A stretch of DNA of 18,790 bases. It comes from an uncultured Candidatus Saccharibacteria bacterium (GTDB lineage: Bacteria; Patescibacteria; Saccharimonadia; Saccharimonadales; UBA4665). The notes below the pieces were generated by a model. The model was not told the origin of the DNA, did no database searches, and worked only from the letters and a program-made list of their open reading frames with translations. The stretch lies in assembly GCA_903925195.1 (NCBI GenBank), contig CAIYEO010000017.1:1-18790 (forward strand), written 5' to 3'. Shown piece after piece: positions 166 through 18,790 of this stretch. The translations under genes were made by a program, and so were the position numbers. Positions within the stretch are counted from its first letter, which is position 1. Every line of letters starts with the position of its first letter.

Positions 166-1263
166 TTACTTGCGGGCTAATACTTTAGTATAAACTCGGT
201 GAGCAATTGCTCCTACTAAAGTAACTAAGGCGAATATTCCTAGTACTTCTCCAGGGCCTGTGTTAACAAGTGTAGTTGGAGGAGTAACTACTGGAGGTAC
301 GGTCTTGCCTTTGAAAGTTATATTAGATGCACATTTATCTGAAGTAATGTTTCCGACTGATGTATCTAAAGTTGCACGTATTAAGTATGTGCCATCAGCA
401 GTATATGTATGACTAATAGGTAACTGATTGAAATTAATACTATTTTTAGTACCGTCACCGAAATCAAGGTTGAGCTTGTTTACAGTTGCACTTCCAGCTG
501 TATAAGTAACATTACTGACACGAACAGTTCTATTGTCACCGTCTAAAGTAATCAGGTTACAGGTTGGAGGAGTAACTACTGGAGGTATAACTACCTTAAC
601 AGCTAATACTACGTAAACTCTTTCATCCCAACATCCCCAAACATCGCCTGGAGTTTGTTCGCTTCGGATAGAAGTACCATTACCAACAATTGAATCACTT
701 AGAGCAACAACGCCAGTGCCTCTACTATATTGACTTGCAGATCCAGGAACATACTGAAGAGTTACGTTCTGACCGTTACAATTAATTGTAACGTTATCTG
801 AAACAGTAGCTGCGTTACTAGCACTTAGTGTAGCACTAGGACTAAAAGTTGAAGCTTTGTCTGAAGATCCAGGTAAAGCAACTTTTAACATAGCGCCGTG
901 AATTACGCTTGGGCCTGTTCCGTTGTTATTTCCATCAACACTAGCACCATTATGAACATATACATGTAGTTGGATAACTTGTCCGTTAGTACAGTTTGAA
1001 CTAACTGGATCAGTAAAAGGAGTAGTTCCTTCGTTTAGATTTCCGCCAACCGGTACTCGACCTTGTAGAAAGTCTTGTTCACCGTCTGCAGGCATTGGAG
1101 CAGATAAATTATTTCCAGTAAAAACATTATATGCAGGTACTGGTGAAGCTAGAGTAGTTGATCCAGTGTAGGGTATAGCGCTTGAAACGCCACCAGCTAA
1201 TGCTAGCACCATTCCAAAACTTGTAAGTCCTAGGGTTATTTTCTTTAGTAGATTTAATTTCAT
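166..1263 (-). CDS. Secreted surface protein with PKD domain and C-terminal LVNTG-type anchor
   Basis: Predicted exported cell-surface protein of 365 aa. Residues 1-29 form a classical signal peptide (KK n-region, hydrophobic core, VSSA before the probable cleavage site). Residues about 40-225 form a CPR-type extracellular domain ending in an aromatic WGCWDERVYV stretch. A PPVVTPPT linker (227-234) leads into a PKD-like domain (about 235-318) with DFGDGT (267-272) and SHTYTADGTY (284-293). The linker recurs at 323-330, followed by LVNTG (332-336), a hydrophobic helix (340-357) and a basic tail. That is the layout of a sortase substrate, although LVNTG departs from LPXTG and may simply be a membrane anchor. 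An AAGGA ribosome binding site precedes the ATG. It lies 23 nt behind the lipoprotein gene and is probably cotranscribed with it. The ligand is unknown; PKD domains usually mediate adhesion or protein contacts. Confidence 0.8.
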   Translation of the reverse strand: MKLNLLKKITLGLTSFGMVLALAGGVSSAIPYTGSTTLASPVPAYNVFTGNNLSAPMPADGEQDFLQGRVPVGGNLNEGTTPFTDPVSSNCTNGQVIQLHVYVHNGASVDGNNNGTGPSVIHGAMLKVALPGSSDKASTFSPSATLSASNAATVSDNVTINCNGQNVTLQYVPGSASQYSRGTGVVALSDSIVGNGTSIRSEQTPGDVWGCWDERVYVVLAVKVVIPPVVTPPTCNLITLDGDNRTVRVSNVTYTAGSATVNKLNLDFGDGTKNSINFNQLPISHTYTADGTYLIRATLDTSVGNITSDKCASNITFKGKTVPPVVTPPTTLVNTGPGEVLGIFALVTLVGAIAHRVYTKVLARK

Positions 1264-1286
1264 AATATATATTCCTTTTTCTCTAA

Positions 1287-2597
1287 TTAATTACAAATTA
1301 CGTAAGGTGGGTTAGGTACACATCCAGGTTGAGTTCCTTTGGTAGGAGCTGTTGTTGTGGTAGTTGTTTCTGGAGTAGTAGTTGTAGTCGTAGGATGAGT
1401 TGTGGTAGTTGTTTCTGGAGTAGTAGTTGTAGTGTTATATGGACCAGTAGTTGTAGTTGAGCCCTCAGGTGATGTAGTTGAAGTGCTACCACCGCCGCCA
1501 TTACCACCGCCACCGTTTCCAGTGCCAGTTCCGCCATTGCCATTACCACCGCCACCGTTTCCAGTGCCAGTTCCGCCATTGCCATTACCACCGCCACCGT
1601 TTCCAGTGCCAGTTCCAATTCCAGATCCACCAGATGCTACTACAGTTGTAGCACCATTTGGATATTGAGTTGTAATAGTTATTTCGCCATTTGGACCAGT
1701 TTGAGTTGTTGTCTTCAAGCCATTTGGACCAATAGTAACATTGGTTTTTGCATTAGGTGCATTATTTGGAGTTACATTTTGCTGGGGAGCATTTTCTTGA
1801 AAATTAACCGAAGTGTTGCCTATAAAGTTATTGAATACAACAGTACCGTCAGTCTGGAATAATATTAGACTTTGTAGTTTAGAATATAGAGCAGCTTCAG
1901 CTGGAGTTATATTTTGATCTACTTGGTTAAAACCAACTTCAAAACCTTGAAGCGTACCAGTAGTATTGATTGTAATAGTTTTAAGGCCTGTAACTTTTTT
2001 ATCTTCTCTTACGGCAGCAATCTCTGTTGCTTGACCTTTTGTAATGGCAAAGTTTTTAGCAGGAGTAAGGAAAGTTAGAAAAGCAGATGCTTGTATTTCA
2101 GCATTTTTAGCAGCTTCAGGACTATTGATGAATGATGTATTTAATTGATTAATACGATCTAGTACGTCTTGACCAGGTAATTGCTTAGTTTGTCTTAGTT
2201 CTTGAACGTAAGAAACTATTGCAAGTGAACGAGTATCTGTACAGATTCTTTCTCTAAGTCTTGAAGTAGCTTCAGTAGTTGAAGCTAGTACTTGTTGACC
2301 GTGCTTATTTAGATTGTATAGTGCAGGAAACATTGATTCAGGCTTAACAAAGTTATCGTTTGCAGATTCTTTATATATATCACCAGTAGTAACACATTCA
2401 GCGCCTTTTTCATTTGGGTTAGTAGTAGAGTGAGAAGCTCCGCGATTGTGATGAGTAGCTTCTTGAGTGGCACCACAGGCAGATAAAATCATCGAACCGG
2501 CCGCTACTAAAGCACCAGCTTTTGCCCAAAAAGGTATTTCACGATTTGAAGTTGAGTTTATATTTTCCTGAGTACTTGTAGATCTTGCTAATTCCAT
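1287..2597 (-). CDS. Putative lipoprotein with Gly/Asn-rich and Thr-rich repeats
   Basis: Uncharacterised 436-aa envelope protein. After a 22-residue polar N-terminus comes a hydrophobic segment (about 23-40) ending in LSAC-G, a good lipobox with Cys41 as the lipidation site; the long n-region is unusual but acceptable. The middle part (about 60-270) is globular and helix-rich without a family I recognise. The C-terminal third is low complexity: a 14-residue Gly/Asn/Thr repeat present three times, then a Thr-rich stretch with TTTTPETTTTT-like units, then a short Cys-containing tail (CVPNPPYVIC) that could form a disulfide. The Thr/Gly region is probably an extended, possibly glycosylated, stalk. 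A strong AGGAGAT ribosome binding site sits just upstream of the ATG, and a separate promoter precedes it. It is probably expressed together with the PKD surface protein. Confidence 0.7.
   Translation of the reverse strand: MELARSTSTQENINSTSNREIPFWAKAGALVAAGSMILSACGATQEATHHNRGASHSTTNPNEKGAECVTTGDIYKESANDNFVKPESMFPALYNLNKHGQQVLASTTEATSRLRERICTDTRSLAIVSYVQELRQTKQLPGQDVLDRINQLNTSFINSPEAAKNAEIQASAFLTFLTPAKNFAITKGQATEIAAVREDKKVTGLKTITINTTGTLQGFEVGFNQVDQNITPAEAALYSKLQSLILFQTDGTVVFNNFIGNTSVNFQENAPQQNVTPNNAPNAKTNVTIGPNGLKTTTQTGPNGEITITTQYPNGATTVVASGGSGIGTGTGNGGGGNGNGGTGTGNGGGGNGNGGTGTGNGGGGNGGGGSTSTTSPEGSTTTTGPYNTTTTTPETTTTTHPTTTTTTPETTTTTTAPTKGTQPGCVPNPPYVICN
1354..1432 (-). repeat. Duplicated Thr-rich coding repeat
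   Basis: Two near-identical 34-nt copies (1354-1387 and 1399-1432, period 45 nt) lie in frame in the lipoprotein gene and encode the TTTTPETTTTT segments. The period is a multiple of three, so copy-number change would keep the frame. Confidence 0.75.
1501..1616 (-). repeat. 42-bp tandem repeat, ~2.8 copies, encoding a Gly/Asn-rich stalk
   Basis: Direct repeats starting TTACCACCGCCACCG occur at 1501, 1543 and 1585, exactly 42 bp apart, and are nearly identical. They encode the 14-aa unit GNGGGGNGNGGTGT on the minus strand. Near-identity at the nucleotide level points to recent expansion; slippage would change stalk length by 14 residues per unit. Confidence 0.9.
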
Positions 2598-2657
2598 TTT
2601 ATATCTCCTGATTACTGTTACACAATTGCTTTTTAATAAATAAAAAGAATTTACACT

Positions 2658-2686
2658 AGTTTATCATAACTTTGTGCTTATGTCAA
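2658..2686 (-). promoter_or_regulatory. Sigma70-type promoter of the lipoprotein/PKD genes
   Basis: On the minus strand TTGACA (2686-2681) is followed after exactly 17 nt by TAAACT (2663-2658), with an upstream TG giving an extended -10 element. It lies about 60 nt before the lipoprotein ATG. The leader contains a 7-bp A/T hairpin (2629-2647) and an AGGAGAT ribosome binding site. Confidence 0.75.
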
Positions 2687-2716
2687 TGTTTAACCTTAAT
2701 ATTGTTATGCTTACAA

Positions 2717-3709
2717 TTACCTTAATTTAGCTCTTAATTGTTCTCTTAAGCTAGTTAGCCATAGGCCGTTATCTGTTTTTAGCTCAATGTGAGCCTCACA
2801 AGAGTCTGCTAAGGCCTCATCTATTGCCTGTTTCTTAATTAATGCTGCCTTGGAATAATTTCGTCTGATGTCTTGTCCAATTTTGTCTTTTTTATCACTT
2901 CCAATATGGAGAACCCTTCTTCTTGTAGAAAAAGTTTCTGTTTTGTCGTGTAGTTCAAAATCACCAGGTTGTATCAGCTCTACGGCAACAACTGAGTTAT
3001 CTTGGCTTTTTAATGCTTCGAGAGCTTCAAGCCAACCATTATCATCACTAGGTAAATAACTATCTCCTCGAAAATCTGAAACAACGAAGATTATACTTCT
3101 AGTTGCTAGTTTTCCTACCCTATCTATGACTGTAGAAAGTCTTATATCTTCTTTTTTATCAGTTTCGAATCTTCCTGAGGCTAATTGCTGGCTGATATAT
3201 TCACCATTACTTAGCAAAGAAATATCCTGAAAAGTTCTAGCTAGTCTTCCAATGACTGGATTTGGCTGAACATATATACCCTCGTCTGTTCCAGCAATAA
3301 GTGCTGTTGGTATATCCTGTTTGATAGCAGTCTTAAGCAGACTAGCAATAACTGACGCGCCTAGATTTTTTTCAGAAAAGTGCCCCTGATTCACGCTCGA
3401 TCGATCTTTAAATACATCTGTTGCAATATATATAGATGGAGTGACTTCACTAACATGAGTTCTTATGACTGGCATAGAACCTTCTGATTGCCGTGCAGTT
3501 AGTCTCCAATCAATATCTTTAACGTTATCACCGAACTGATATTCTCTAACGCCATCTCTTTCTCTACCGCGGCCTCTGTTCCTTGAAATATGCTCACCTC
3601 CAACAAAACCACTCAAATTAGGTGATTCTATGGAGGGCACAGAACCAACACCTTCTACGCCTTGATCAGGCTGAAAGACCGGTTCATATTTATTATTTTC
3701 AAGTGACAT
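2717..3709 (-). CDS. DUF58 domain protein of the MoxR/VWA cluster
   Basis: The 330-aa protein carries the DUF58 signature: a basic RGRGRERDGVREY segment, then FGDNVKDIDWRLTAR (59-73), matching the family pattern Y-x-x-GD-x-x-R-x-IDW-x-x-(T/S)AR. The rest follows a VWA-like fold (ATDVF near 96-100, IIFVVSDFRGD near 200). Unlike many DUF58 proteins it has no N-terminal membrane helices, so it is probably cytoplasmic. DUF58 proteins are commonly encoded next to MoxR ATPases and VWA proteins and are thought to act in a chaperone-like complex; the client is unknown. It is the third gene of the operon, 30 nt after MoxR, with an AGGA too far from the ATG to be a strong ribosome binding site. Confidence 0.85.
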   Translation of the reverse strand: MSLENNKYEPVFQPDQGVEGVGSVPSIESPNLSGFVGGEHISRNRGRGRERDGVREYQFGDNVKDIDWRLTARQSEGSMPVIRTHVSEVTPSIYIATDVFKDRSSVNQGHFSEKNLGASVIASLLKTAIKQDIPTALIAGTDEGIYVQPNPVIGRLARTFQDISLLSNGEYISQQLASGRFETDKKEDIRLSTVIDRVGKLATRSIIFVVSDFRGDSYLPSDDNGWLEALEALKSQDNSVVAVELIQPGDFELHDKTETFSTRRRVLHIGSDKKDKIGQDIRRNYSKAALIKKQAIDEALADSCEAHIELKTDNGLWLTSLREQLRAKLR

Positions 3710-3739
3710 ATCTGTAATTATCCTAAACTTTCAGTAATT

Positions 3740-4753
3740 TTATTGAATAGTTTTTTGAGGATTCATCTTAAGAGCATCTTCATATAGCTCATCGAATGTT
3801 GCCTTAGAACCAAATTTCAAACCAGTTCTGTGCTGAAGTACATATTTAGCAACCCGATCAACATCAGTATCATAAACTTCTTGTTGACCATTCTTGATAG
3901 CATTTAATGTAGCTAACCTATAAATAATAATCGCAGGTCTAGCACCAGCAAGTACTGTTAACTCTGGATCTAATTCACGACTAAGTTCAGAATCTCTTAA
4001 AGATATGATTATGTTAGCAGTACGATATTTAACTGATTTAGATAATGCTACTAGACCTACAGCTCTTTGAACTAAAGCTAAATCACCTGGACTAAGTCTC
4101 TGATTGGCTTTAACGCCTTTTATGCCATATTCAGCAGCTGTAACCATATCGTCAGTGTCATATGGGGCAAACTTCATACTAACTGCAAATCTATCTCTAA
4201 GGCCGTTTGTAAGCAGTTGAGTACCTGTCTCAATGTTCTGCGCGTTCTGAGTTGCAAGAAGCATGTGATGAGCAGGTAGTTCATAAGTTACGCCATTAAC
4301 CGTTACTTGAGATTCGGCCAATGGTTCAATAAGAGCAGCTTGTTCTCTTGCATTAGATCTATTTACTTCGTCTCCAAGTACTATATCACCGAAGATTGGT
4401 CCAGGGATAAACTGAAAATCTCCATTTTTATAGATTACATTGCCAGTTATATCACTTGTAGTAAGATCTGGAGAACCTTGAAACCTAGTATAAGTTCCAC
4501 CCCTAATATCTGCTAAAGCTTTAGCGATAGTCGTCTTACCAAGTCCTGGATGAGAATCCATTAAGACATGACCATCACGACCCATAGAAGCAGCTAAACT
4601 TAAGATTGTCCTGTGTTCTGGATCCATATGTACGGATTGAGCTAATTCTGCACCAATCGCATTAATGATTCTTGATCCTTCATCTATGTATATGTGACTA
4701 TCAATTGATAAGTTAGAATCTTCTTGTTTTAAAATATATCCTTCGTGTTTCAT
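3740..4753 (-). CDS. MoxR-family AAA+ ATPase
   Basis: A 337-aa AAA+ protein of the MoxR subfamily. Walker A is HPGLGKTT (68-75), Walker B is IVLGDEVNR (124-132), and sensor 1 lies in MLLATQNAQN (164-173). The stretch after Walker B (AREQAALIEPLAESQVTV) is the characteristic MoxR segment. MoxR ATPases are proposed to remodel or insert metal into client proteins together with VWA proteins. The gene lies between the VWA and DUF58 genes in the same operon, 24 nt after VWA, with a strong AAGGAG ribosome binding site. All ATPase motifs are intact, so activity is expected even though the partner VWA has a degenerate metal site. Length is normal for the family. Confidence 0.93.
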   Translation of the reverse strand: MKHEGYILKQEDSNLSIDSHIYIDEGSRIINAIGAELAQSVHMDPEHRTILSLAASMGRDGHVLMDSHPGLGKTTIAKALADIRGGTYTRFQGSPDLTTSDITGNVIYKNGDFQFIPGPIFGDIVLGDEVNRSNAREQAALIEPLAESQVTVNGVTYELPAHHMLLATQNAQNIETGTQLLTNGLRDRFAVSMKFAPYDTDDMVTAAEYGIKGVKANQRLSPGDLALVQRAVGLVALSKSVKYRTANIIISLRDSELSRELDPELTVLAGARPAIIIYRLATLNAIKNGQQEVYDTDVDRVAKYVLQHRTGLKFGSKATFDELYEDALKMNPQKTIQ

Positions 4754-14303: not shown

Positions 14304-14380
14304 GGGCCATTAGCTCAGCTGGTTAGAGCACCTGCCTCTTAAGCAGGGTGTCCTGGGTTCAAGTCCCAGATGGCCCTCCA
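14304..14380 (+). tRNA. trnK: tRNA-Lys (anticodon CTT), anchor of the cassette array
   Basis: A complete cloverleaf: acceptor GGGCCAT/ATGGCCC, D-stem GCTC/GAGC, anticodon stem CCTGC/GCAGG with loop CTCTTAA (anticodon CTT at 14338-14340), variable GTGTC, and T-arm CTGGG-TTCAAGT-CCCAG. The CCA end is encoded. It reads AAG codons. Position 73 (discriminator) is T, whereas bacterial tRNA-Lys normally has A73. The last ten bases TGGCCCTCCA recur at the end of downstream cassettes, so this gene appears to be the integration target that each insertion rebuilds. A terminator follows at once. Confidence 0.97.
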
Positions 14381-14396
14381 ATACGCTTATGCTTAA

Positions 14397-14423
14397 AACA
14401 GAGGTGAAAATGCCTCTGTTTTT
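14397..14423 (+). terminator. Intrinsic terminator after tRNA-Lys / start of cassette 1
   Basis: AACAGAGG (14397-14404) pairs with CCTCTGTT (14413-14420) around an 8-nt loop and is followed by TTT. It ends the tRNA transcript. A homologous hairpin stands at the same place behind the first array repeat, so it probably belongs to the cassette and not to the tRNA gene. Confidence 0.85.
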
Positions 14424-14426
14424 GTA

Positions 14427-14432
14427 TATACT
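14427..14432 (+). promoter_or_regulatory. -10 box of cassette 1, leaderless arrangement
   Basis: TATACT ends 6 nt before the ATG at 14439, so transcription would start at the start codon. A weak -35 (GTGAAA, 14404-14409, four of six) lies 17 nt upstream inside the terminator hairpin. Confidence 0.5.
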
Positions 14433-14438
14433 TTTCTT

Positions 14439-14936
14439 ATGACGTCCGATGATGTTTTAGATATTTACAATTTGTTTAACCAAAACAAAATAACCATATG
14501 GGTTGATGGCGGTTGGTGTATTGATGCGCTACTGGGTAAACAAACCAGAGAGCATCCCGACCTGGATATTGCCGTACAGCGTAAAGACAACACTAGGTTA
14601 CGAGAGTTGCTTGAAAGTAAGGGCTTTCAAGAGCAGAAACGCAATGATAGCGTCCAGTGGATGTATGTTTTGAGAAATGGTGACGGTAAGCAGGTTGATG
14701 TACACGCTTTTGAATATGATGACGCTGGCAAAAACGTTTACGGTATTGAATATCCATATGGTTCTTTAACTGGGAAAGGGACCATAAATGGCCAGGAAGT
14801 AAACTGTATATCTCCTGAATGGATGTTTAAATTCAAGACCGCATACAAGCCAAAAGACAAAGATAAAAGTGATGTTAACGCACTAGCTAATAAGTTTGGG
14901 TATTCTGTGCCTGATTCACATTTGCTTGAACAATAG
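14439..14936 (+). CDS. Nucleotidyltransferase of the lincosamide/aminoglycoside-modifying type
   Basis: A 165-aa protein with the minimal nucleotidyltransferase fold: WVDGGWCIDALLGK (21-34) followed by REHPDLDIAV (37-46), in which Asp41 and Asp43 are the expected metal ligands, and a VDVHAFEYD strand (about 88-96) with the third acidic position. Length and motif order fit LnuA/LnuC lincosamide and ANT(2'')-like aminoglycoside nucleotidyltransferases, which inactivate the drug by AMP transfer. Family members also include proteins of unknown substrate, so resistance is not shown. It is the array gene next to the tRNA. The -10 box lies 6 nt from the ATG without a ribosome binding site, and the last base of its stop codon is the first base of the following repeat, so the cassette is extremely compact. 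Confidence 0.8.
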   Translation: MTSDDVLDIYNLFNQNKITIWVDGGWCIDALLGKQTREHPDLDIAVQRKDNTRLRELLESKGFQEQKRNDSVQWMYVLRNGDGKQVDVHAFEYDDAGKNVYGIEYPYGSLTGKGTINGQEVNCISPEWMFKFKTAYKPKDKDKSDVNALANKFGYSVPDSHLLEQ

Positions 14937-14965
14937 TTGCGATAGCATCTACTGTGGCCCTCCAA
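14936..14965 (+). repeat. Cassette repeat 1 (att-like)
   Basis: Left arm GTTGCGATAGCATCTACTG (14936-14954), then TGGCCCTCCA (14955-14964), identical to the tRNA-Lys 3' end, then A. Downstream identity with the tRNA flank continues (ATACGCTTATGCTTAA, 14965-14980, equals 14381-14396). It overlaps the stop codon of the nucleotidyltransferase gene. Confidence 0.9.
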
Positions 14966-14979
14966 TACGCTTATGCTTA

Positions 14980-15006
14980 AACAGAGATAAAATGTCTCTG
15001 TTTTTT
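14980..15006 (+). terminator. Intrinsic terminator at start of cassette 2
   Basis: AACAGAGA (14980-14987) pairs with TCTCTGTT (14995-15002) around TAAAATG, followed by a T run (15001-15006). Sequence and position relative to the repeat match the hairpin behind the tRNA, with compensating stem changes (GG/CC there, GA/TC here). Confidence 0.88.
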
Positions 15007-15008
15007 GC

Positions 15009-15014
15009 TATAAT
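15009..15014 (+). promoter_or_regulatory. -10 box of cassette 2, leaderless arrangement
   Basis: Consensus TATAAT ends 6 nt before the ATG at 15021, the same spacing as in cassette 1. It directly abuts the terminator T run. The -35 region is poor (GATAAA at 17-nt spacing). Confidence 0.6.
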
Positions 15015-15020
15015 GACCCT

Positions 15021-15617
15021 ATGAAGATTCAGCATGACCAAACTTGCGTTATAATAGTAGACTTTCAGAACGACAGTTGTGGAGTTGGCCTAGGCAATCA
15101 AGAAAAGTATCAACCTATCATAGAAGCAGTTAATAAAACAAATAAGCTTATGGATGTGTTACGAAAGAAGGGTGTAGCCTGTATATTTACAAAACATATT
15201 GAAGAGCCTAATTCCCTACCAGATAACTTACAGCTTCTATATGACAACAAAGAAAATCTAAGTAATGGCCATTATACCAAGGGTCAATCTGGATCTGAGC
15301 TTTATGGTAACCTTATTCTTCCTTATGATCTTGTATTTGAAAAAACACTCTGGGGAGCTTTTAGTAATAAAGATCTTGAAAGCTATTTAATTTCAAAAGA
15401 TATTAAGAACCTAATTATCTGTGGTGCCGAAACAGAAACATGTGTACTGTCTACGATTACTGAAGCATTTGATCGTGGCTACAATATTTTTATGCCAATT
15501 AATTGTATAGCTACTAAAGCAAATAAAATAGACAGCCACCATATACCTATGATGGAAATATTCAATAGATACTATGGATATGTAATTGACGAATCAGATC
15601 TACTAAACATGCTTTGA
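15021..15617 (+). CDS. Isochorismatase-like cysteine hydrolase
   Basis: A 198-aa member of the isochorismatase/nicotinamidase superfamily. The catalytic triad is visible: Asp14 (IIVDFQND), Lys108 (FEKTLWGAF) and Cys141 (GAETETCV), and the family's cis-peptide segment precedes the Cys. Members hydrolyse nicotinamide, N-carbamoyl compounds, isochorismate and similar amides; the substrate cannot be read from sequence, and the metal-binding Asp-x-His pattern of true nicotinamidases is not obvious. NAD salvage is a reasonable guess for a host-dependent bacterium but remains a guess. The start is the ATG 6 nt after TATAAT, with no ribosome binding site. The stop lies 6 nt before repeat 2. Confidence 0.87.
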   Translation: MKIQHDQTCVIIVDFQNDSCGVGLGNQEKYQPIIEAVNKTNKLMDVLRKKGVACIFTKHIEEPNSLPDNLQLLYDNKENLSNGHYTKGQSGSELYGNLILPYDLVFEKTLWGAFSNKDLESYLISKDIKNLIICGAETETCVLSTITEAFDRGYNIFMPINCIATKANKIDSHHIPMMEIFNRYYGYVIDESDLLNML

Positions 15618-15623
15618 ATGTTA

Positions 15624-15653
15624 GTTGATATAGTAAGTACGGTGGCCCTCCAA
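15624..15653 (+). repeat. Cassette repeat 2 (att-like)
   Basis: Left arm GTTGATATAGTAAGTACGG, core TGGCCCTCCA (15643-15652), then A. It aligns without gaps to the other copies. The flank downstream differs from the tRNA flank (AGTTCTTATTCAC). Confidence 0.88.
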
Positions 15654-15665
15654 GTTCTTATTCAC

Positions 15666-15686
15666 AAACGACCTTCGGGTCGTTTT
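15666..15686 (+). terminator. UUCG-capped intrinsic terminator at start of cassette 3
   Basis: AAACGACC (15666-15673), TTCG loop, GGTCGTTT (15678-15685) and a further T. It stands in the same position behind the repeat as the hairpins of cassettes 1 and 2 but is unrelated in sequence. Confidence 0.88.
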
Positions 15687-15745
15687 GCTTTGCAATAGGC
15701 TTATGATAAGCTTGAGAGGTATACAGTCATTAATTAAGAGCGACT

Positions 15746-16390
15746 ATGGATCCCATTAAACCAGAATCAATACAGCCCACCGTAAGCACCGATTCTATCC
15801 CCGTTCCAACACAGGTAACTCCAGTTGTACCAATGGCATCACCCAGTCCCGTAGTGCCAACGACACCAACTGCTCCGGTAGTGCTGTCACAGCCAGTTAA
15901 GCAGAGTGGGACCCTCGGAGCTTGGTTAATGCTCATTATCGTCATTCCGTTTCTGGTGATATCGATACTCGCATCGATCTTCATCTCTATCTACTTCGCC
16001 CATGACACAAGGCTACTGAAGACGGGTACCCTCGGTACTGCCGTAGTGACTGCAACACGAGATACGGGTGGTCGGAATTCAGGACCAGCCTATCTGATCT
16101 CATATCACTTAATTGATGTCTCAGGCTACAGCACACAGACATACTCATCGCTTGTACCGGGAGTTGATGGACAAAACGTGTCGAGCGGTCAACATATGGC
16201 CGTTATTTATAACCCCTCTAACCCTTCAGACAACGGTCTTCAGGTGGCTCTCGAAAATAATAGCTCATCGCTTGCAACTGTCTTACCCTGGTTGTTCCCA
16301 GTGATACCAGTTATCGCGCTTATAGCGATCGTTATCAATATAGTCAGGGTTACTCGTCGTAAACGGGCAATCTCGAGTCTTAGCGCATGA
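15746..16390 (+). CDS. Membrane protein with DUF3592-like domain
   Basis: A 214-aa protein. Residues 1-52 are a Pro/Thr/Val-rich tail without charge clusters. A TM helix follows (about 58-85), then an extracytoplasmic domain (about 92-170) with GTAVVTATRD, YLISYHLID and VIYNPSNPSDN, the strand pattern of DUF3592 proteins. A second TM helix (about 180-204) leads to a basic C-terminus. Function is unknown. An AAGAG 6 nt before the ATG is a weak ribosome binding site. The stop overlaps the next start (ATGA), so the two form a coupled pair. GC content is far above the surroundings (34 of 60 bases at 15841-15900), which suggests acquisition from a different donor. Confidence 0.65.
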   Translation: MDPIKPESIQPTVSTDSIPVPTQVTPVVPMASPSPVVPTTPTAPVVLSQPVKQSGTLGAWLMLIIVIPFLVISILASIFISIYFAHDTRLLKTGTLGTAVVTATRDTGGRNSGPAYLISYHLIDVSGYSTQTYSSLVPGVDGQNVSSGQHMAVIYNPSNPSDNGLQVALENNSSSLATVLPWLFPVIPVIALIAIVINIVRVTRRKRAISSLSA

Positions 16391-17061
16391 TGCTTGGACT
16401 GTATCTAGGATTTTGGCTTGTTGCTATCGCAATACTATTCGTGGTGATTCGCAAGTATACCAAGAAGCGAGATAGTGCGCTCCAGGTATTTGCATCACAG
16501 CATAGTTTGACCTATGTACCACATCCTAATGCTGTATCGGTGGTTGAGCCAAAACTCATCAACGCTCAGAGGGGGATCTATGATCAGATGATAGACGCAA
16601 GTAACAACAGTACCTTCTTCTGTGATAGTGGTGCCGTTCAAAGTGGCGGTGGCAGTGGCCAGTCAACCGACAGATTCTTAGGCATTAGGCGGTTAGTTAG
16701 CAATCAGACATCCTTCGTCCTTGCTCCAAATGACGGCTCGACTATGCGGTTCTTTAACACAAATTCGTTCGAGCAAGTTAGCTTTGAAAGCGACGACCTC
16801 AACAAGGTCTACCGTCTCATGACTCAGCCCGGGCAAGAGGTCGATGCACTACAAATGTTATCACCGAATCTGCTACTATGGCTGGCTCAGAACGCGTCAA
16901 ACGCAACGATTGTCATGAAGTCGGGAAGCTTATATGTTTATATGCGCAATCGTGTAGTGTTCTCAGGTGATAGTGAGTCGAGCTACGAATCGCAGTATGC
17001 TCTTATAAATTCTATCGGTGATTACTTAATGCTTCACATGCCAAAGGCCCCAGTTGTATGA
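16387..17061 (+). CDS. Uncharacterised membrane-anchored protein, partner of the DUF3592-like protein
   Basis: A 224-aa protein with one N-terminal TM helix (about 4-21) followed by basic residues and a soluble, probably cytoplasmic, domain of mixed strands and helices. No family is recognised with confidence. An FASQHSLTYVPHP segment after the anchor is of a kind seen in membrane-anchored proteins of this phylum. Translation is coupled to the preceding gene through ATGA; the second Met at 16390 is an equally possible start. It shares the raised GC content of its partner (29 of 60 bases at 16441-16500). The stop codon is followed at once by a degenerate copy of the repeat's left arm. Confidence 0.6.
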   Translation: MMLGLYLGFWLVAIAILFVVIRKYTKKRDSALQVFASQHSLTYVPHPNAVSVVEPKLINAQRGIYDQMIDASNNSTFFCDSGAVQSGGGSGQSTDRFLGIRRLVSNQTSFVLAPNDGSTMRFFNTNSFEQVSFESDDLNKVYRLMTQPGQEVDALQMLSPNLLLWLAQNASNATIVMKSGSLYVYMRNRVVFSGDSESSYESQYALINSIGDYLMLHMPKAPVV

Positions 17062-17085
17062 GTTCAAACGGCATCTACTATCTAG
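17062..17085 (+). repeat. Degenerate left arm of a cassette repeat (vestigial)
   Basis: Directly after the stop codon at 17061, the sequence starts GTT and contains GCATCTACT in the same register as repeat 1 (14 of the first 20 positions match without gaps). The GGCCCTCCA half is missing. A complete repeat follows at 17110. Confidence 0.4.
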
Positions 17086-17109
17086 GTTGAGATATGAGCA
17101 CCAAGCTCA

Positions 17110-17139
17110 GTTCTAACAGCTAGTACGATGGCCCTCCAA
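17110..17139 (+). repeat. Cassette repeat 3 (att-like)
   Basis: Left arm GTTCTAACAGCTAGTACGA, core TGGCCCTCCA (17129-17138), then A. This copy has the most divergent left arm, but its core is unchanged. Confidence 0.85.
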
Positions 17140-17168
17140 TTCCGAACAACAGATGACCCTAATAAGAA

Positions 17169-17191
17169 AGTTAGAACTAACTAGTTTGCAA
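17169..17191 (-). terminator. Weak hairpin downstream of the reverse-oriented cassette gene
   Basis: AGTTA (17169-17173) pairs with TAACT (17178-17182) around GAAC; in the minus direction a T-rich stretch follows. It lies about 20 nt past the stop of the minus-strand gene. The stem is short, so this is a weak call. Confidence 0.3.
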
Positions 17192-17202
17192 TGACTGTAT
17201 TT

Positions 17203-17706
17203 TTATTCGTCCGATTCATAACCGTAAGTTACAGGGTAAAGACCAGTAGCCCCTCGCTGCATTTCTGTATATAGTAACTCTCTTTGTTCATTAGTTGGCT
17301 CGGATAAACCGTGTTTGCTATCAGCTCGCTTATGTAATTCTGCTTTTGCAATTTCTACGAATGAACCATTTGTAATTAAATTGTGGTAAATATCTATACA
17401 ACCGATATCGTCAATATCCATTCTGAACGTTACAACTTCAAAACCAGTTTCGCCAGGCGAGTTTAAAATACGCAATGTTGTTGGTATAAGCTTTGTCATT
17501 GTGGTGCTCTTATGGCGCAGACCCTCATCAATTAAATGTGCAGTACCGCCTTCTTCTGCCTGCCATTGAGCGTGAGCAATACCAAATGTAAATCCGCCAA
17601 TATTTCTTCGCCTACCTAGCCAGTGCGATTCAATTAAGGCACTATCTCTATATTCTCGCAAATGCTCTAAATACTCATTGCCGTGCAAACTAATAGGTAA
17701 ACTCAT
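17203..17706 (-). CDS. Uncharacterised cassette protein, reverse orientation
   Basis: A soluble protein of 167 aa from the ATG at 17706. An in-frame TTG at 17742 would add 12 residues. I prefer the ATG, though neither start has a clear ribosome binding site. No family is recognised. Visible features are a basic GRRRNIGGFTFGIAH segment (about 31-46), a strand pair around TLRILNSPGETGFEVVTFRMDIDDIG and an acidic C-terminus. There is no signal peptide or TM helix. It is the only array gene facing the tRNA; its 5' end lies 74 nt from repeat 4 and its 3' end 63 nt from repeat 3. Base composition is AT-rich (22 GC of 60 at 17461-17520), unlike the preceding cassette. Confidence 0.6.
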   Translation of the reverse strand: MSLPISLHGNEYLEHLREYRDSALIESHWLGRRRNIGGFTFGIAHAQWQAEEGGTAHLIDEGLRHKSTTMTKLIPTTLRILNSPGETGFEVVTFRMDIDDIGCIDIYHNLITNGSFVEIAKAELHKRADSKHGLSEPTNEQRELLYTEMQRGATGLYPVTYGYESDE

Positions 17707-17780
17707 TGCTACAATACTTTCATAAGCCCTAAACTGGTGCAAGCATAGGCATGATGTACGGCTTAGTATCTGCTAATTTA

Positions 17781-17810
17781 GTTGCAATAGTTTTCACTAA
17801 GGCCCTCCAA
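17781..17810 (+). repeat. Cassette repeat 4 (att-like)
   Basis: Left arm GTTGCAATAGTTTTCACTA, then AGGCCCTCCA (first core base A instead of T), then A. The flank contains TTATGCTTAAA (17817-17827), a motif it shares with the flanks of the tRNA and repeat 1. Confidence 0.88.
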
Positions 17811-17853
17811 GAGAATTATGCTTAAACTAATAATTTTTTAAGGATAGGCGTAA

Positions 17854-17881
17854 TTGAAATTTCTTTTTTTTCATGTAAGAT
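17854..17881 (+). promoter_or_regulatory. Promoter of the small membrane protein gene
   Basis: TTGAAA (17854-17859), 16-nt spacer, TAAGAT (17876-17881), 7 nt before the ATG. A leaderless or near-leaderless transcript is predicted. Confidence 0.5.
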
Positions 17882-17888
17882 ATAGATT

Positions 17889-18119
17889 ATGGCAACAAAC
17901 AAGCACAAAATACAGCTACAAAAGAGAGATTGGGCAATTATATTATTGTTCATACTAATGATAGTAACTAACCTTTGGTGGTGGGGTATAAACAATGTGC
18001 ATGATAGCGTCGAAAACGACTTACATAATATCAACTCAAGACAATTATTAATAAATAATCAATTGAAAACTTGTGTTAATGAAGGTACTAAGACCTGTGA
18101 TATAAGTTCTCCATATTAG
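17889..18119 (+). CDS. Small single-pass membrane protein
   Basis: A 76-aa protein: basic N-terminus (about 1-13), one TM helix (about 15-33) ending in WWW, then an external tail of about 43 residues with two Cys (TCVNEGTKTC) nine residues apart, possibly disulfide-bonded. The sequence gives no family. The ATG follows a plausible promoter by 7 nt with no ribosome binding site. It is the sole gene of the smallest cassette (368 bp), and the opposite-strand frame over it lacks comparable features. Coding status is supported by the signal-anchor layout and the fit between two repeats, not by homology. Confidence 0.6.
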   Translation: MATNKHKIQLQKRDWAIILLFILMIVTNLWWWGINNVHDSVENDLHNINSRQLLINNQLKTCVNEGTKTCDISSPY

Positions 18120-18148
18120 TAAAAGTAGACTTTTCTGCAAATATTTTG

Positions 18149-18178
18149 GTTGCGATAGCGTCTACAGTGGCCCTCTAA
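18149..18178 (+). repeat. Cassette repeat 5 (att-like)
   Basis: Left arm GTTGCGATAGCGTCTACAG, then TGGCCCTCTA (one change, TCTA for TCCA), then A. The left arm differs from repeat 1 at only two positions although it is the most distal copy. The flank has CTCTCGCTTAAAAT, a variant of the TATGCTTAAA motif. Confidence 0.88.
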
Positions 18179-18228
18179 AATGCTCTCGCTTAAAATTATG
18201 TATTATTTAAAATAACTTGAATGAATAC

Positions 18229-18257
18229 TTGACATTTATAACTACATAACATATACT
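18229..18257 (+). promoter_or_regulatory. Consensus promoter of the toxin-antitoxin pair
   Basis: TTGACA (18229-18234), 17-nt spacer, TATACT (18252-18257), 7 nt before the antitoxin ATG. Transcription would start at the start codon. No ribosome binding site is present. Antitoxins of this family usually repress their own promoter, but I see no clear palindrome over it. Confidence 0.85.
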
Positions 18258-18264
18258 CTGTAGT

Positions 18265-18534
18265 ATGAATACAGTAATAAGCGTAAAAATTGATAAAGAT
18301 GTAAAAACCTCCGCACAAGAAGTTGCTAAAAGTGCTGGTCTCACATTAAGTACTTTAGTTAATGCCTACCTACGTCAAGTAGCCGCTACTCGTCGCATTG
18401 AATTATATGCTCCAGAACAAATGACACCAAAATTAGAAAAACTTATCGAAGAAGTGGAAGCTGAACTTAAAGCAGGCAAAGCTAGCAAAGAGTTTAATAG
18501 CGTGGAAGAGTTTCTGGCTGATCTTAAAAAATAA
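18265..18534 (+). CDS. RelB/DinJ-family antitoxin
   Basis: An 89-aa protein with an N-terminal ribbon-helix-helix region (about 1-45): MNTVISVKID strand, then helices containing KTSAQEVAKSAGLTLSTLVNAYLRQVA. This is the RelB/DinJ DNA-binding and dimerisation type. The C-terminal half is a charged helix (about 50-89) suited to wrapping the toxin. It neutralises the RelE-like toxin encoded 5 nt downstream and probably autoregulates the pair. It is transcribed from a consensus promoter with the start codon at the predicted transcription start. Toxin-antitoxin pairs are common stabilising cargo in gene arrays such as chromosomal integrons. Confidence 0.9.
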   Translation: MNTVISVKIDKDVKTSAQEVAKSAGLTLSTLVNAYLRQVAATRRIELYAPEQMTPKLEKLIEEVEAELKAGKASKEFNSVEEFLADLKK

Positions 18535-18539
18535 TTTCT

Positions 18540-18790
18540 ATGACTATACGTTACCTACCAAAATTCAAAAAGCAATATAAAAAGCTTCCACTTAAAATGC
18601 AAACTCAATTTGATGACCGAGTTCAATTATTCGTTGTTGACCCCACCCAACCAAAACTCAAAGTACATCCACTAAAAGGAAAATTCGCTGGCTACTGGAG
18701 TATGAGTGTTAGTGGTGATATACGTGCACTTTATATTATAGAAGGAGACACAATTGTAATTTTTGCTCTTATTGGTACTCATAGCCAGCT
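18540..18790 (+). CDS. RelE/YafQ-family mRNA interferase toxin (3' end outside window)
   Basis: The first 83 codons of a RelE-fold toxin. The family pattern is clear: LPKFKKQYKKLP at the N-terminus, HPLKGKFAGYWSMSVSGDIRALY in the middle (with the conserved Arg) and FALIGTHSQL at the end, whose His is the usual catalytic residue. Such toxins cleave mRNA in the ribosome A site. Only a few C-terminal residues should be missing. It begins 5 nt after the antitoxin stop and is presumably cotranscribed. The cassette border beyond it cannot be seen. Confidence 0.9.
   Translation, partial: MTIRYLPKFKKQYKKLPLKMQTQFDDRVQLFVVDPTQPKLKVHPLKGKFAGYWSMSVSGDIRALYIIEGDTIVIFALIGTHSQ

What the first reader, a model, noticed from the sequence alone, without database searches (positions are those of the whole stretch)
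14371..18178. Integron-like cassette array anchored on a tRNA-Lys gene
Seen: five same-orientation 30-bp repeats (14936, 15624, 17110, 17781, 18149) that align without gaps, with GGCCCTCCA from the tRNA 3' end as their right half, separate unrelated one- or two-gene units. Known: tyrosine recombinases often use tRNA 3' ends as attB, and integrons collect single-gene cassettes at attI. Inference: here the two themes are combined. The tRNA acts as the entry site, each new cassette lands next to it and restores its 3' end, and older cassettes move outward. Cassettes of 368-1486 bp are too small to carry their own integrase. I do not recall a named system with this layout.
Basis: partly seen in the sequence, partly recalled or inferred. 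Interest (0 to 1): 0.95.

Follow-up and report, generated by a model that had tools for sequence, protein, structure and literature searches.

The report
Gene cassettes stacked behind a tRNA
In this DNA from a Saccharibacteria-like microbe, small one- or two-gene cassettes sit head to tail behind a lysine tRNA gene, each bounded by the same short repeat ending in a copy of the tRNA's tail; one relative has 22 such repeats in one row, and the cassettes are likely moved by serine integrases that target tRNA ends, which would make this a gene-capture system that resembles integrons but uses a different enzyme.

Summary
Five ungapped 30-bp repeats (AGTTGC-R-ATAR-N5-AC-NN-T + GGCCCTCCA) lie downstream of tRNA-Lys(CTT) in one orientation and delimit small gene cassettes; a sixth cassette (RelB/YafQ-like) runs off the window. 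A model of the repeat hits 96 of 294 genomes of the order. In loci chosen for matches, 90 of 93 sites lie downstream of tRNA-Lys on its strand, and 119 cassettes have a median of 706 bp. One genome has 22 sites in a row. A related contig carries cassettes 2-5, and 6 as far as seen, at 99.8% identity but joins cassette 2 directly to a tRNA-Lys end: cassette 1 came or went core to core.

The integron/tyrosine-recombinase reading is not supported. The better candidate is a large serine recombinase: such genes abut tRNA-Lys or an array core in 4 genomes, and abut many tRNA ends antisense (26 of 30); at other tRNAs, 6 of 53 core copies show GTTCC in the array arm's register. The closest published relatives are Dehalococcoides ssrA islands and SCC. 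New is the integron-like form: mostly single-gene, integrase-less cassettes in long rows at tRNA-Lys. Recombination itself is untested.

The parts
14304..14380 (+). tRNA-Lys(CTT); its last 10 nt (14371-14380, TGGCCCTCCA) are the inferred entry core
   Evidence: ARAGORN; core shared with the sites
14372..14955 (+). Cassette 1 (584 bp): nucleotidyltransferase ORF 14439-14936 + (PF10706 aminoglycoside-2''-adenylyltransferase-like); absent at this junction in G001
14399..14424 (+). Terminator-like hairpin plus T run just after the restored tRNA end, within cassette 1
   Evidence: sequence; class enriched at cassette starts
14935..14964 (+). Attachment repeat 1 (arm + core)
   Evidence: 49.5 bits
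14956..15643 (+). Cassette 2 (688 bp): isochorismatase-family ORF 15021-15617 +; terminator-like hairpin 14982-15006
   Evidence: 100% identical in G001
15623..15652 (+). Attachment repeat 2
   Evidence: 40.3 bits
15644..17129 (+). Cassette 3 (1486 bp): two unknown ORFs 15746-16390 + and 16387-17061 +
   Evidence: no Pfam hit
17109..17138 (+). Attachment repeat 3
   Evidence: 35.4 bits
17130..17800 (+). Cassette 4 (671 bp): unknown ORF 17203-17742 on the minus strand
17780..17809 (+). Attachment repeat 4
   Evidence: 37.3 bits
17801..18168 (+). Cassette 5 (368 bp): 76-aa ORF 17889-18119 +
18148..18177 (+). Attachment repeat 5 (core GGCCCTCTA)
   Evidence: 43.1 bits
18169..18790 (+). Cassette 6, cut by the window end: RelB-like 18265-18534 + and YafQ/ParE-like toxin 18540 onward +; in G001 its next site lies 671 bp after this core

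Best explanation
This is an array of small gene cassettes, each bounded by one attachment repeat whose right half copies the 3' end of tRNA-Lys, that was likely built by site-specific insertion at that tRNA by large serine recombinases (SCC/ssrA-island kind) supplied in trans. SHOWN: the repeats, their orientation and tRNA linkage, sharing of cassettes between genomes as units with other neighbours, one core-to-core presence/absence next to a tRNA-Lys end, and large serine recombinase genes sitting at the tRNA-Lys core or an array core in four other genomes. INFERRED: a cassette circularises at its repeat, recombines in the TGGCCCTCCA core shared with the tRNA, restores the tRNA end, often brings a terminator for it, and leaves its own left arm at the far end, so older cassettes are pushed outward. 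Integrase-less cassettes would be moved by the integrase of a co-resident or transient element with the same site, as is thought of SCC elements without ccr (recalled).
For: (1) Array statistics. (2) Shared units: a two-ORF cassette of G002 and G024, 81% over 690 nt, in mid-array and in first place; G001 vs G003 cassettes 98.7-99.7%. (3) Window 14955-18790 matches G001:C61 at 99.8% and starts at the core; cassette 1 is absent there. (4) Serine recombinase ORFs of 540, 557 and 577 aa abut tRNA-Lys antisense in G030, G156 and G020. In G257 a 558-aa one lies inside the array; it ends 4 nt beyond the core and its last residues (LGGP) are encoded by the core. In G030, G156 and G257 the next canonical array site closes the element. 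(5) 26 of 30 such genes lie within 150 bp of an antisense tRNA end (Lys, Glu, Arg, Pro, Met, Leu, Gly, Asn, Ala, Trp), 17 of 20 in the loci picked mainly by gene length and contig size. They group largely by target tRNA. (6) 53 copies of the tRNA 3' 9-mer lie downstream in 16 of 23 non-Lys loci: GTTCC stands 20 nt before the core, the array arm's register, in 6, and at most 1 at any other offset. (7) Four of six tested, G030 and G156 among them, match NCBIfam CcrB/CcrC/XisF below cut-off; G030's matches A118 integrase in the PDB. (8) Arrays occur where Xer is the only tyrosine recombinase found.
Against: Any serine recombinase (PF00239) is not more common with arrays: 12 of 15 relatives with two or more sites (none in G006, G025, G027) against 18 of 25 others; 24 of 41 further array genomes have one. 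Only four were seen at tRNA-Lys or its array. The Lys pair G020/G257 gives no Ccr or XisF match, and no canonical right site was found for G020. G156's 11.2-kb element also holds a tyrosine recombinase, and G137:C31 shows one about 7 kb from a canonical site. The array-arm matrix puts only 3 of 53 non-Lys copies above the 99th percentile of a shifted control and none above its maximum; GTT alone also peaks at offset 36 (6, against 9 in register). Classical serine integrases need attP x attB and would not re-enter an occupied site (recalled); Ccr-like permissiveness must be assumed. No circular form or reaction was observed.
Confidence: 0.68

Rival explanations
1. The cassettes are moved by a tyrosine recombinase: the single host Xer protein, or an integrase on a helper element, with the tRNA 3' end as attB (the first reader's view; similar in spirit to Xer-dependent modules and tycheposons).
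For: tRNA 3' ends are classical tyrosine-integrase targets (general knowledge). All 40 relatives show a conserved tyrosine recombinase of Xer type. A second tyrosine recombinase lies in G156's first element and on the same contig as a canonical site in G137:C31.
Against: 13 of 15 array relatives have one tyrosine recombinase only. No canonical dif was found around the skew switch of the single-contig genome G007, nor a shared one by a dif-like pattern. The right arm is not an ungapped inverted copy of the left arm. G030, G020 and G257, with a serine recombinase at the core, have no second tyrosine recombinase. In the stretches fetched around ten other second tyrosine recombinases (L193/L265, L243, L244, L246-L252; up to 19 kb each) no array site was seen; those of G035, G045 and G185 were not looked at.
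Confidence: 0.2
2. The array is a set of dead remnants: several ordinary islands inserted long ago at tRNA-Lys and were trimmed, or were shuffled by RecA-dependent recombination between repeats; no cassette mobility now.
For: Repeats vary (11-52 bits), some are decayed. Block sharing could be RecA-driven. Local divergence centred on one site between G001 and G003 fits gene conversion.
Against: Intervals between cores are 80% coding. Core-to-core presence/absence with 3.8 kb at 99.8% beside it. 144 of 164 protein clusters are singletons. Many near-consensus sites.
Confidence: 0.1
3. A true integron with an undetected integron integrase and folded attC sites.
For: Cassette size, array length and toxin-antitoxin cassettes look integron-like.
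Against: The three tyrosine recombinases typed score 137-141 bits against a 265 cut-off for integron integrase. Sites are conserved in sequence and carry tRNA 3' ends; the arm GTTGCGA does not fit GTTRRRY (motif recalled). attC folding was not run.
Confidence: 0.01

Closest known systems
Dehalococcoides ssrA-specific genomic islands with DsiB/DsiA (PMC3146451: abstract, passages and section 11 read)
   Same: Tandem islands downstream of an RNA gene, bounded by a direct repeat of its 3' end; a conserved motif just upstream of the repeat; a 540-residue CcrB-like serine recombinase on the reverse strand at attL, overlapping it at its 3' end with the stop only beyond; 15 of 31 islands lack the integration module.
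   Different: There the target is tmRNA and the vcr islands are ~12 kb; here the target is tRNA-Lys, cassettes have a median of 706 bp with mostly one gene, one row has 22 sites, and few integrase-bearing members were seen. A DsiA-like second small serine recombinase was not seen at the Lys loci.
Staphylococcal cassette chromosome (SCC) and CcrAB/CcrC
   Same: Large serine recombinase; insertion at a gene's 3' end; tandem composites; elements without recombinase (recalled; search listings only). NCBIfam Ccr hits below cut-off for four of six enzymes tested.
   Different: Target is rlmH, not a tRNA; SCC elements are tens of kb (recalled).
Integrons and superintegrons
   Same: Long one-orientation rows of small, mostly single-gene cassettes, toxin-antitoxin among them; one repeat per cassette; entry at a fixed end (integron side recalled).
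   Different: No integron integrase found; site is sequence-conserved and ends in a tRNA 3' end; many cassettes start with a terminator-like hairpin.
Additive island fGI-2 of Ca. Methylopumilus (PMC10872708, passages)
   Same: Recurring 20-bp repeats of a tRNA-Lys(CTT) fragment mark a variable island of 330 bp-42 kb.
   Different: The passages give no recombinase or arm motif for it; the repeat printed there looks like the other end of the tRNA (my reading).
Tycheposons (PMC10872708 passages); Xer/dif modules of Acinetobacter plasmids (search listing)
   Same: tRNA-anchored cargo; or recombinase-less modules moved by a resident enzyme.
   Different: Tyrosine recombinases; tycheposons are 4-200 kb; Xer sites have two 11-bp arms (recalled), not seen here.

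Membership tests
Integron | intI integrase gene | tested here: not met
   34 of 40 relatives have one tyrosine recombinase; three typed as Xer-like, integron-integrase model 137-141 bits vs cut-off 265. The window's own genome is not held.
Integron | attC sites: low sequence conservation, foldable inverted boxes | tested here: inconclusive
   Sites are conserved in sequence; right arm not an ungapped inverted copy of left. attC folding was not run.
SCC / ssrA-island kind (CcrB-DsiB-like) | Large serine recombinase at the left end, antisense, 3' end overlapping the attachment core | tested here: met
   G030, G156, G020 at tRNA-Lys; G257 in the array. Not in the window itself.
SCC / ssrA-island kind (CcrB-DsiB-like) | Sequence match of that enzyme to CcrB | tested here: inconclusive
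   G030 and G156 match NCBIfam CcrB at 60 and 41 bits (cut-off 900); G020 and G257 do not match.
SCC / ssrA-island kind (CcrB-DsiB-like) | Tandem elements bounded by repeats of the target gene's 3' end | tested here: met
SCC / ssrA-island kind (CcrB-DsiB-like) | Conserved motif directly upstream of the repeat | tested here: met
   AGTTGC-R-ATAR-N5-AC arm; GTTCC in the same register in 6 of 53 core copies at other tRNAs
SCC / ssrA-island kind (CcrB-DsiB-like) | Second small serine recombinase (CcrA/DsiA) | tested here: inconclusive
   121-150 aa resolvase hits precede the large one in G229 and G236; no such small hit listed beside the Lys ones
SCC / ssrA-island kind (CcrB-DsiB-like) | Excision and integration by the serine recombinase | not testable with these tools
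   needs an assay
SCC proper | Ccr equivalogs and rlmH target | tested here: not met
   NCBIfam Ccr scores 39-106 bits, or none, vs cut-offs 700-900 for six enzymes; target is tRNA
Xer/dif modules | Paired-arm Xer sites like the host dif | tested here: inconclusive
   No inverted arms in the site; the host dif itself was not identified
Tycheposon | Tyrosine recombinase-bearing tRNA element, 4-200 kb | tested here: not met
   median cassette 706 bp; no recombinase family among those listed for the cassette ORFs

The most novel reading that the evidence does not exclude
A natural gene-cassette capture system parallel to integrons, built on tRNA-targeting large serine recombinases: in Saccharibacteria, tRNA-Lys is the entry port and mostly single-gene cassettes with one shared attachment site form rows of up to 22 sites, moved in trans by SCC/DsiB-like integrases whose branches largely follow the tRNA they target.
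Probability: 0.6. Interest if true: 0.9.

Novelty: new variant of a known kind. Interest (0 to 1): 0.82.

Why it matters
Saccharibacteria have very small genomes and depend on hosts (general knowledge), and how they gain genes is poorly known. A dedicated cassette row at a tRNA would give them an integron-like way to add toxin-antitoxin, defence and metabolic genes one at a time. It would also show that cassette capture arose on serine recombinases. The 26 integrase genes found against a tRNA end, grouped largely by that tRNA, are a ready set for studying how such enzymes choose a site and for gene-insertion tools.

Tried and rejected
Xer/dif: a dif-like pattern in 31 genomes gave 25 unlike matches, about as many as its reversed control. 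The skew switch of G007 was located and 200 kb around it scanned; no canonical dif. Inverted-arm (tyrosine core) model: the ungapped reverse-complement arm matrix scored below shuffles (-6.8 vs -6.0), rejected. Viral helper: the corrected site pattern has 0 matches in IMG/VR contigs. Searches used a spacer one base too long; one search is void and serves only as background (20 matches in 288 genomes). Serine recombinase by mere presence: no association (one search's list of genomes without a match is cut, so the 25 'others' are those of the 40 not listed there with two or more sites). Horizontal transfer between species: FolD 66% and MurD 55% aa identity against a 99.8% array suggest it, but G001:C61 is a short contig whose tRNA is a TTT/CTT hybrid, with a switch at a short shared stretch. 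Misbinning or chimaera is possible, so transfer is not claimed.
Full report
WHAT IS THERE. The window is from a Saccharibacteria-like genome: of the seven best MurD relatives four are named Candidatus Saccharibacteria, two 'bacterium' and one an Oligoflexia bin. Its own assembly is not held. tRNA-Lys(CTT) lies at 14304-14380. Downstream are five repeats of 30 bp with cores starting at 14956, 15644, 17130, 17801 and 18169. They bound cassettes with a nucleotidyltransferase (PF10706), an isochorismatase, a pair of unknown genes, an unknown gene on the other strand and a 76-aa ORF. A sixth cassette, cut by the window end, has RelB and YafQ/ParE-like genes.

THE SITE. From 58 sites in the window and L101-L120 the site is AGTTGC-R-ATAR-N5-AC-NN-T then GGCCCTCCA-A. 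Arm positions -20 to -16 and -13 to -11 are at 87% or more, -15 at 75%, the nine core positions at 93% or more. Positions 0 to 9 (TGGCCCTCCA) are what the tRNA shares; the tRNA lacks the arm. After the core many cassettes start like ATnCGCTTATGCTTAAAC (TTATGCTT in 21 of 123 sites and 8 of 33 tRNA ends). A terminator-like hairpin with a T run lies in the first 86 nt of 46 of 119 cassettes, against 14 on the other strand, 7 in the interior and 8 at the end; for tRNA-adjacent cassettes 17 of 25. So a cassette that takes the place behind the tRNA tends to bring a terminator.

DISTRIBUTION. A sequence model of 45 sites hits 96 of 294 genomes of the order (E<=0.01, strict filters) and 9 of 379 drawn across the phylum (E<=0.001): six in the order, two in the same class, one elsewhere. 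The arm-plus-CCA pattern found 26 sites in 197 genomes, 25 with the tRNA-Lys core or a near variant, and 0 for the reversed pattern. For 41 stretches chosen because they had matches or tRNA-Lys (window, L101-L120, L192-L211), 90 of 93 sites of 20 bits or more on stretches with a tRNA-Lys lie downstream on its strand. The three exceptions are on two stretches with a tRNA-Lys inside the array. G032 has 22 sites. The 119 intervals between successive cores (under 6 kb) have a median of 706 bp (264-4673), 80% coding, 75 with one ORF, 145 ORFs with and 49 against the array direction; four of them are the same cassettes in the window and G001.

CARGO. 183 ORFs of 70 aa or more were scanned (75 + 108; those of the four G001 duplicates and shorter ones left out). 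Counts from the listed families: PIN 8, DUF6364 6, Phd/YefM at least 5, YoeB 4, YafQ 4, NUDIX at least 4. PADLOC gives a few hits to mads, viperin, AriA, PsyrT and others (only the top 25 families are listed in three of these four calls). No recombinase family is among those listed. 144 of 164 protein clusters are singletons.

MOBILITY. Window 14955-18790 and G001:C61 1706-5539 are 99.8% identical, and the match starts at the core; in G001 that core is the end of a tRNA-Lys, in the window it is preceded by cassette 1. This is the empty (or emptied) site. Caveat: the G001 tRNA is a hybrid whose 5' half and upstream bases match G001's tRNA-Lys(TTT) on another contig, so the upstream part of that contig may be chimaeric. 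G001 and G003 share a 520-bp cassette (98.7%) behind different neighbours, and a 706-bp one (99.7%). G002 and G024 share a two-ORF cassette (81% over 690 nt) in mid-array and in first place. Neighbours change while boundaries hold.

THE ENZYME. All 40 relatives have a tyrosine recombinase of the conserved Xer type; 6 have further ones, and 13 of the 15 with two or more sites have one only. Of 41 further array genomes 33 show any tyrosine recombinase. Following G156, whose second tyrosine recombinase lies between tRNA-Lys and the first site, I found that the gene next to the tRNA there is a 557-aa large serine recombinase, antisense, its end reading into the tRNA. The same holds for G030 (540 aa) and G020 (577 aa). 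In G257 a 558-aa relative of G020's (64% identical) lies inside the array and ends 4 nt beyond a repeat core: it once sat at the tRNA, or entered at a repeat (inference). In G030, G156 and G257 the next canonical repeat closes the element; for G020 none was found. Across 30 such genes in 30 stretches, 26 lie within 150 bp of an antisense tRNA; one exception is the G257 array case and three have none nearby. Ten stretches had been noticed for a tRNA or a repeat; the other 20 were picked mainly by gene length and contig size (one, G007, was also seen near a tRNA) and give 17 of 20. The stop codon lies inside or beyond the antisense tRNA's 3' end in 25 of 26. The tree of 27 groups them largely by target, with two separate Lys pairs and some mixing of Glu, Met and Arg. 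At other tRNAs, copies of the tRNA 3' 9-mer downstream carry GTTCC at the array arm's register in 6 of 53, against at most 1 at any other offset; GTT alone gives 9 there and 6 at offset 36. At tRNA-Glu of G032 two such copies stand 978 bp apart, a cassette behind an integrase element.

AGAINST. Serine recombinases as such are not more common in array genomes (12 of 15 vs 18 of 25; 24 of 41 in the second set). The G020/G257 pair has no NCBIfam Ccr or XisF match, unlike G030 and G156. Canonical serine integrases are one-way (recalled). Two tyrosine recombinases with a cytosine methylase, Vsr and HNH module lie in elements ended by canonical sites (for the module Pfam was run on the G156 copies, the G137 ones are read by likeness). 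Hence 0.68, not more.

LITERATURE. Ten searches (open-licence PMC only; listings seen) showed no report of cassette arrays at tRNA-Lys in Saccharibacteria. PMC12455944 (HGT in Patescibacteria; passages) has 0 mentions of tRNA, integron, cassette or recombinase; PMC13059738 (patescibacterial epibiont; passages) has 0 of serine recombinase or cassette. PMC3146451 (abstract, passages, section 11) describes the closest system, including integrase genes that overlap attL at their 3' end.

VERDICT. A real, widespread, tRNA-anchored cassette system; most likely an SCC/ssrA-island-type mechanism in integron-like form. A new variant of a known kind.

Noticed in passing
L242, L262, L263, L202, L265, L247, L250, L251, L243, L267, L274-L293: A family of large serine recombinases in Saccharibacteria relatives sits antisense against tRNA 3' ends (Lys, Glu, Arg, Pro, Met, Leu, Gly, Asn, Ala, Trp); in 25 of 26 the stop codon is at or beyond the tRNA's 3' end, so integration would change the enzyme's C-terminus.
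   Followed up: partly
L101 1640-1715 (G001:C61): A tRNA-Lys inside an array is a hybrid: 5' half and upstream bases of tRNA-Lys(TTT), 3' half of tRNA-Lys(CTT), joined to an array at a short shared stretch; probable assembly chimaera.
   Followed up: partly
L206 5213-5289 and 6861-6937 (G041:C2): Two tRNA-Lys(TTT) genes in one array, one apparently carried within a cassette interval.
   Followed up: no
L101 902 vs L105 1833: Two cassettes near-identical on both sides differ almost only within about 30 bp of the repeat between them, as if the site itself had been exchanged.
   Followed up: partly
L242 11234-15673; L245 5749-9841: A tyrosine recombinase lies with a C5-cytosine methylase, Vsr endonuclease and HNH protein in elements ended by array sites in two genomes.
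   Followed up: partly
G229:C7 67247-67549; G236:C28 984-1286: A short resolvase-domain ORF (121-150 aa) lies just before a large serine recombinase, reminiscent of the CcrA/CcrB and DsiA/DsiB pairs.
   Followed up: no
window 14439-14936: Cassette 1 encodes an aminoglycoside-2''-adenylyltransferase-like protein, a type of gene also known from integron cassettes (the integron remark is recalled).
   Followed up: no
G007:C1 around 750 kb (L235-L238): GC skew switches near 750 kb, yet no canonical dif was found although a Xer protein is conserved; the Xer site of these bacteria may be unusual.
   Followed up: partly
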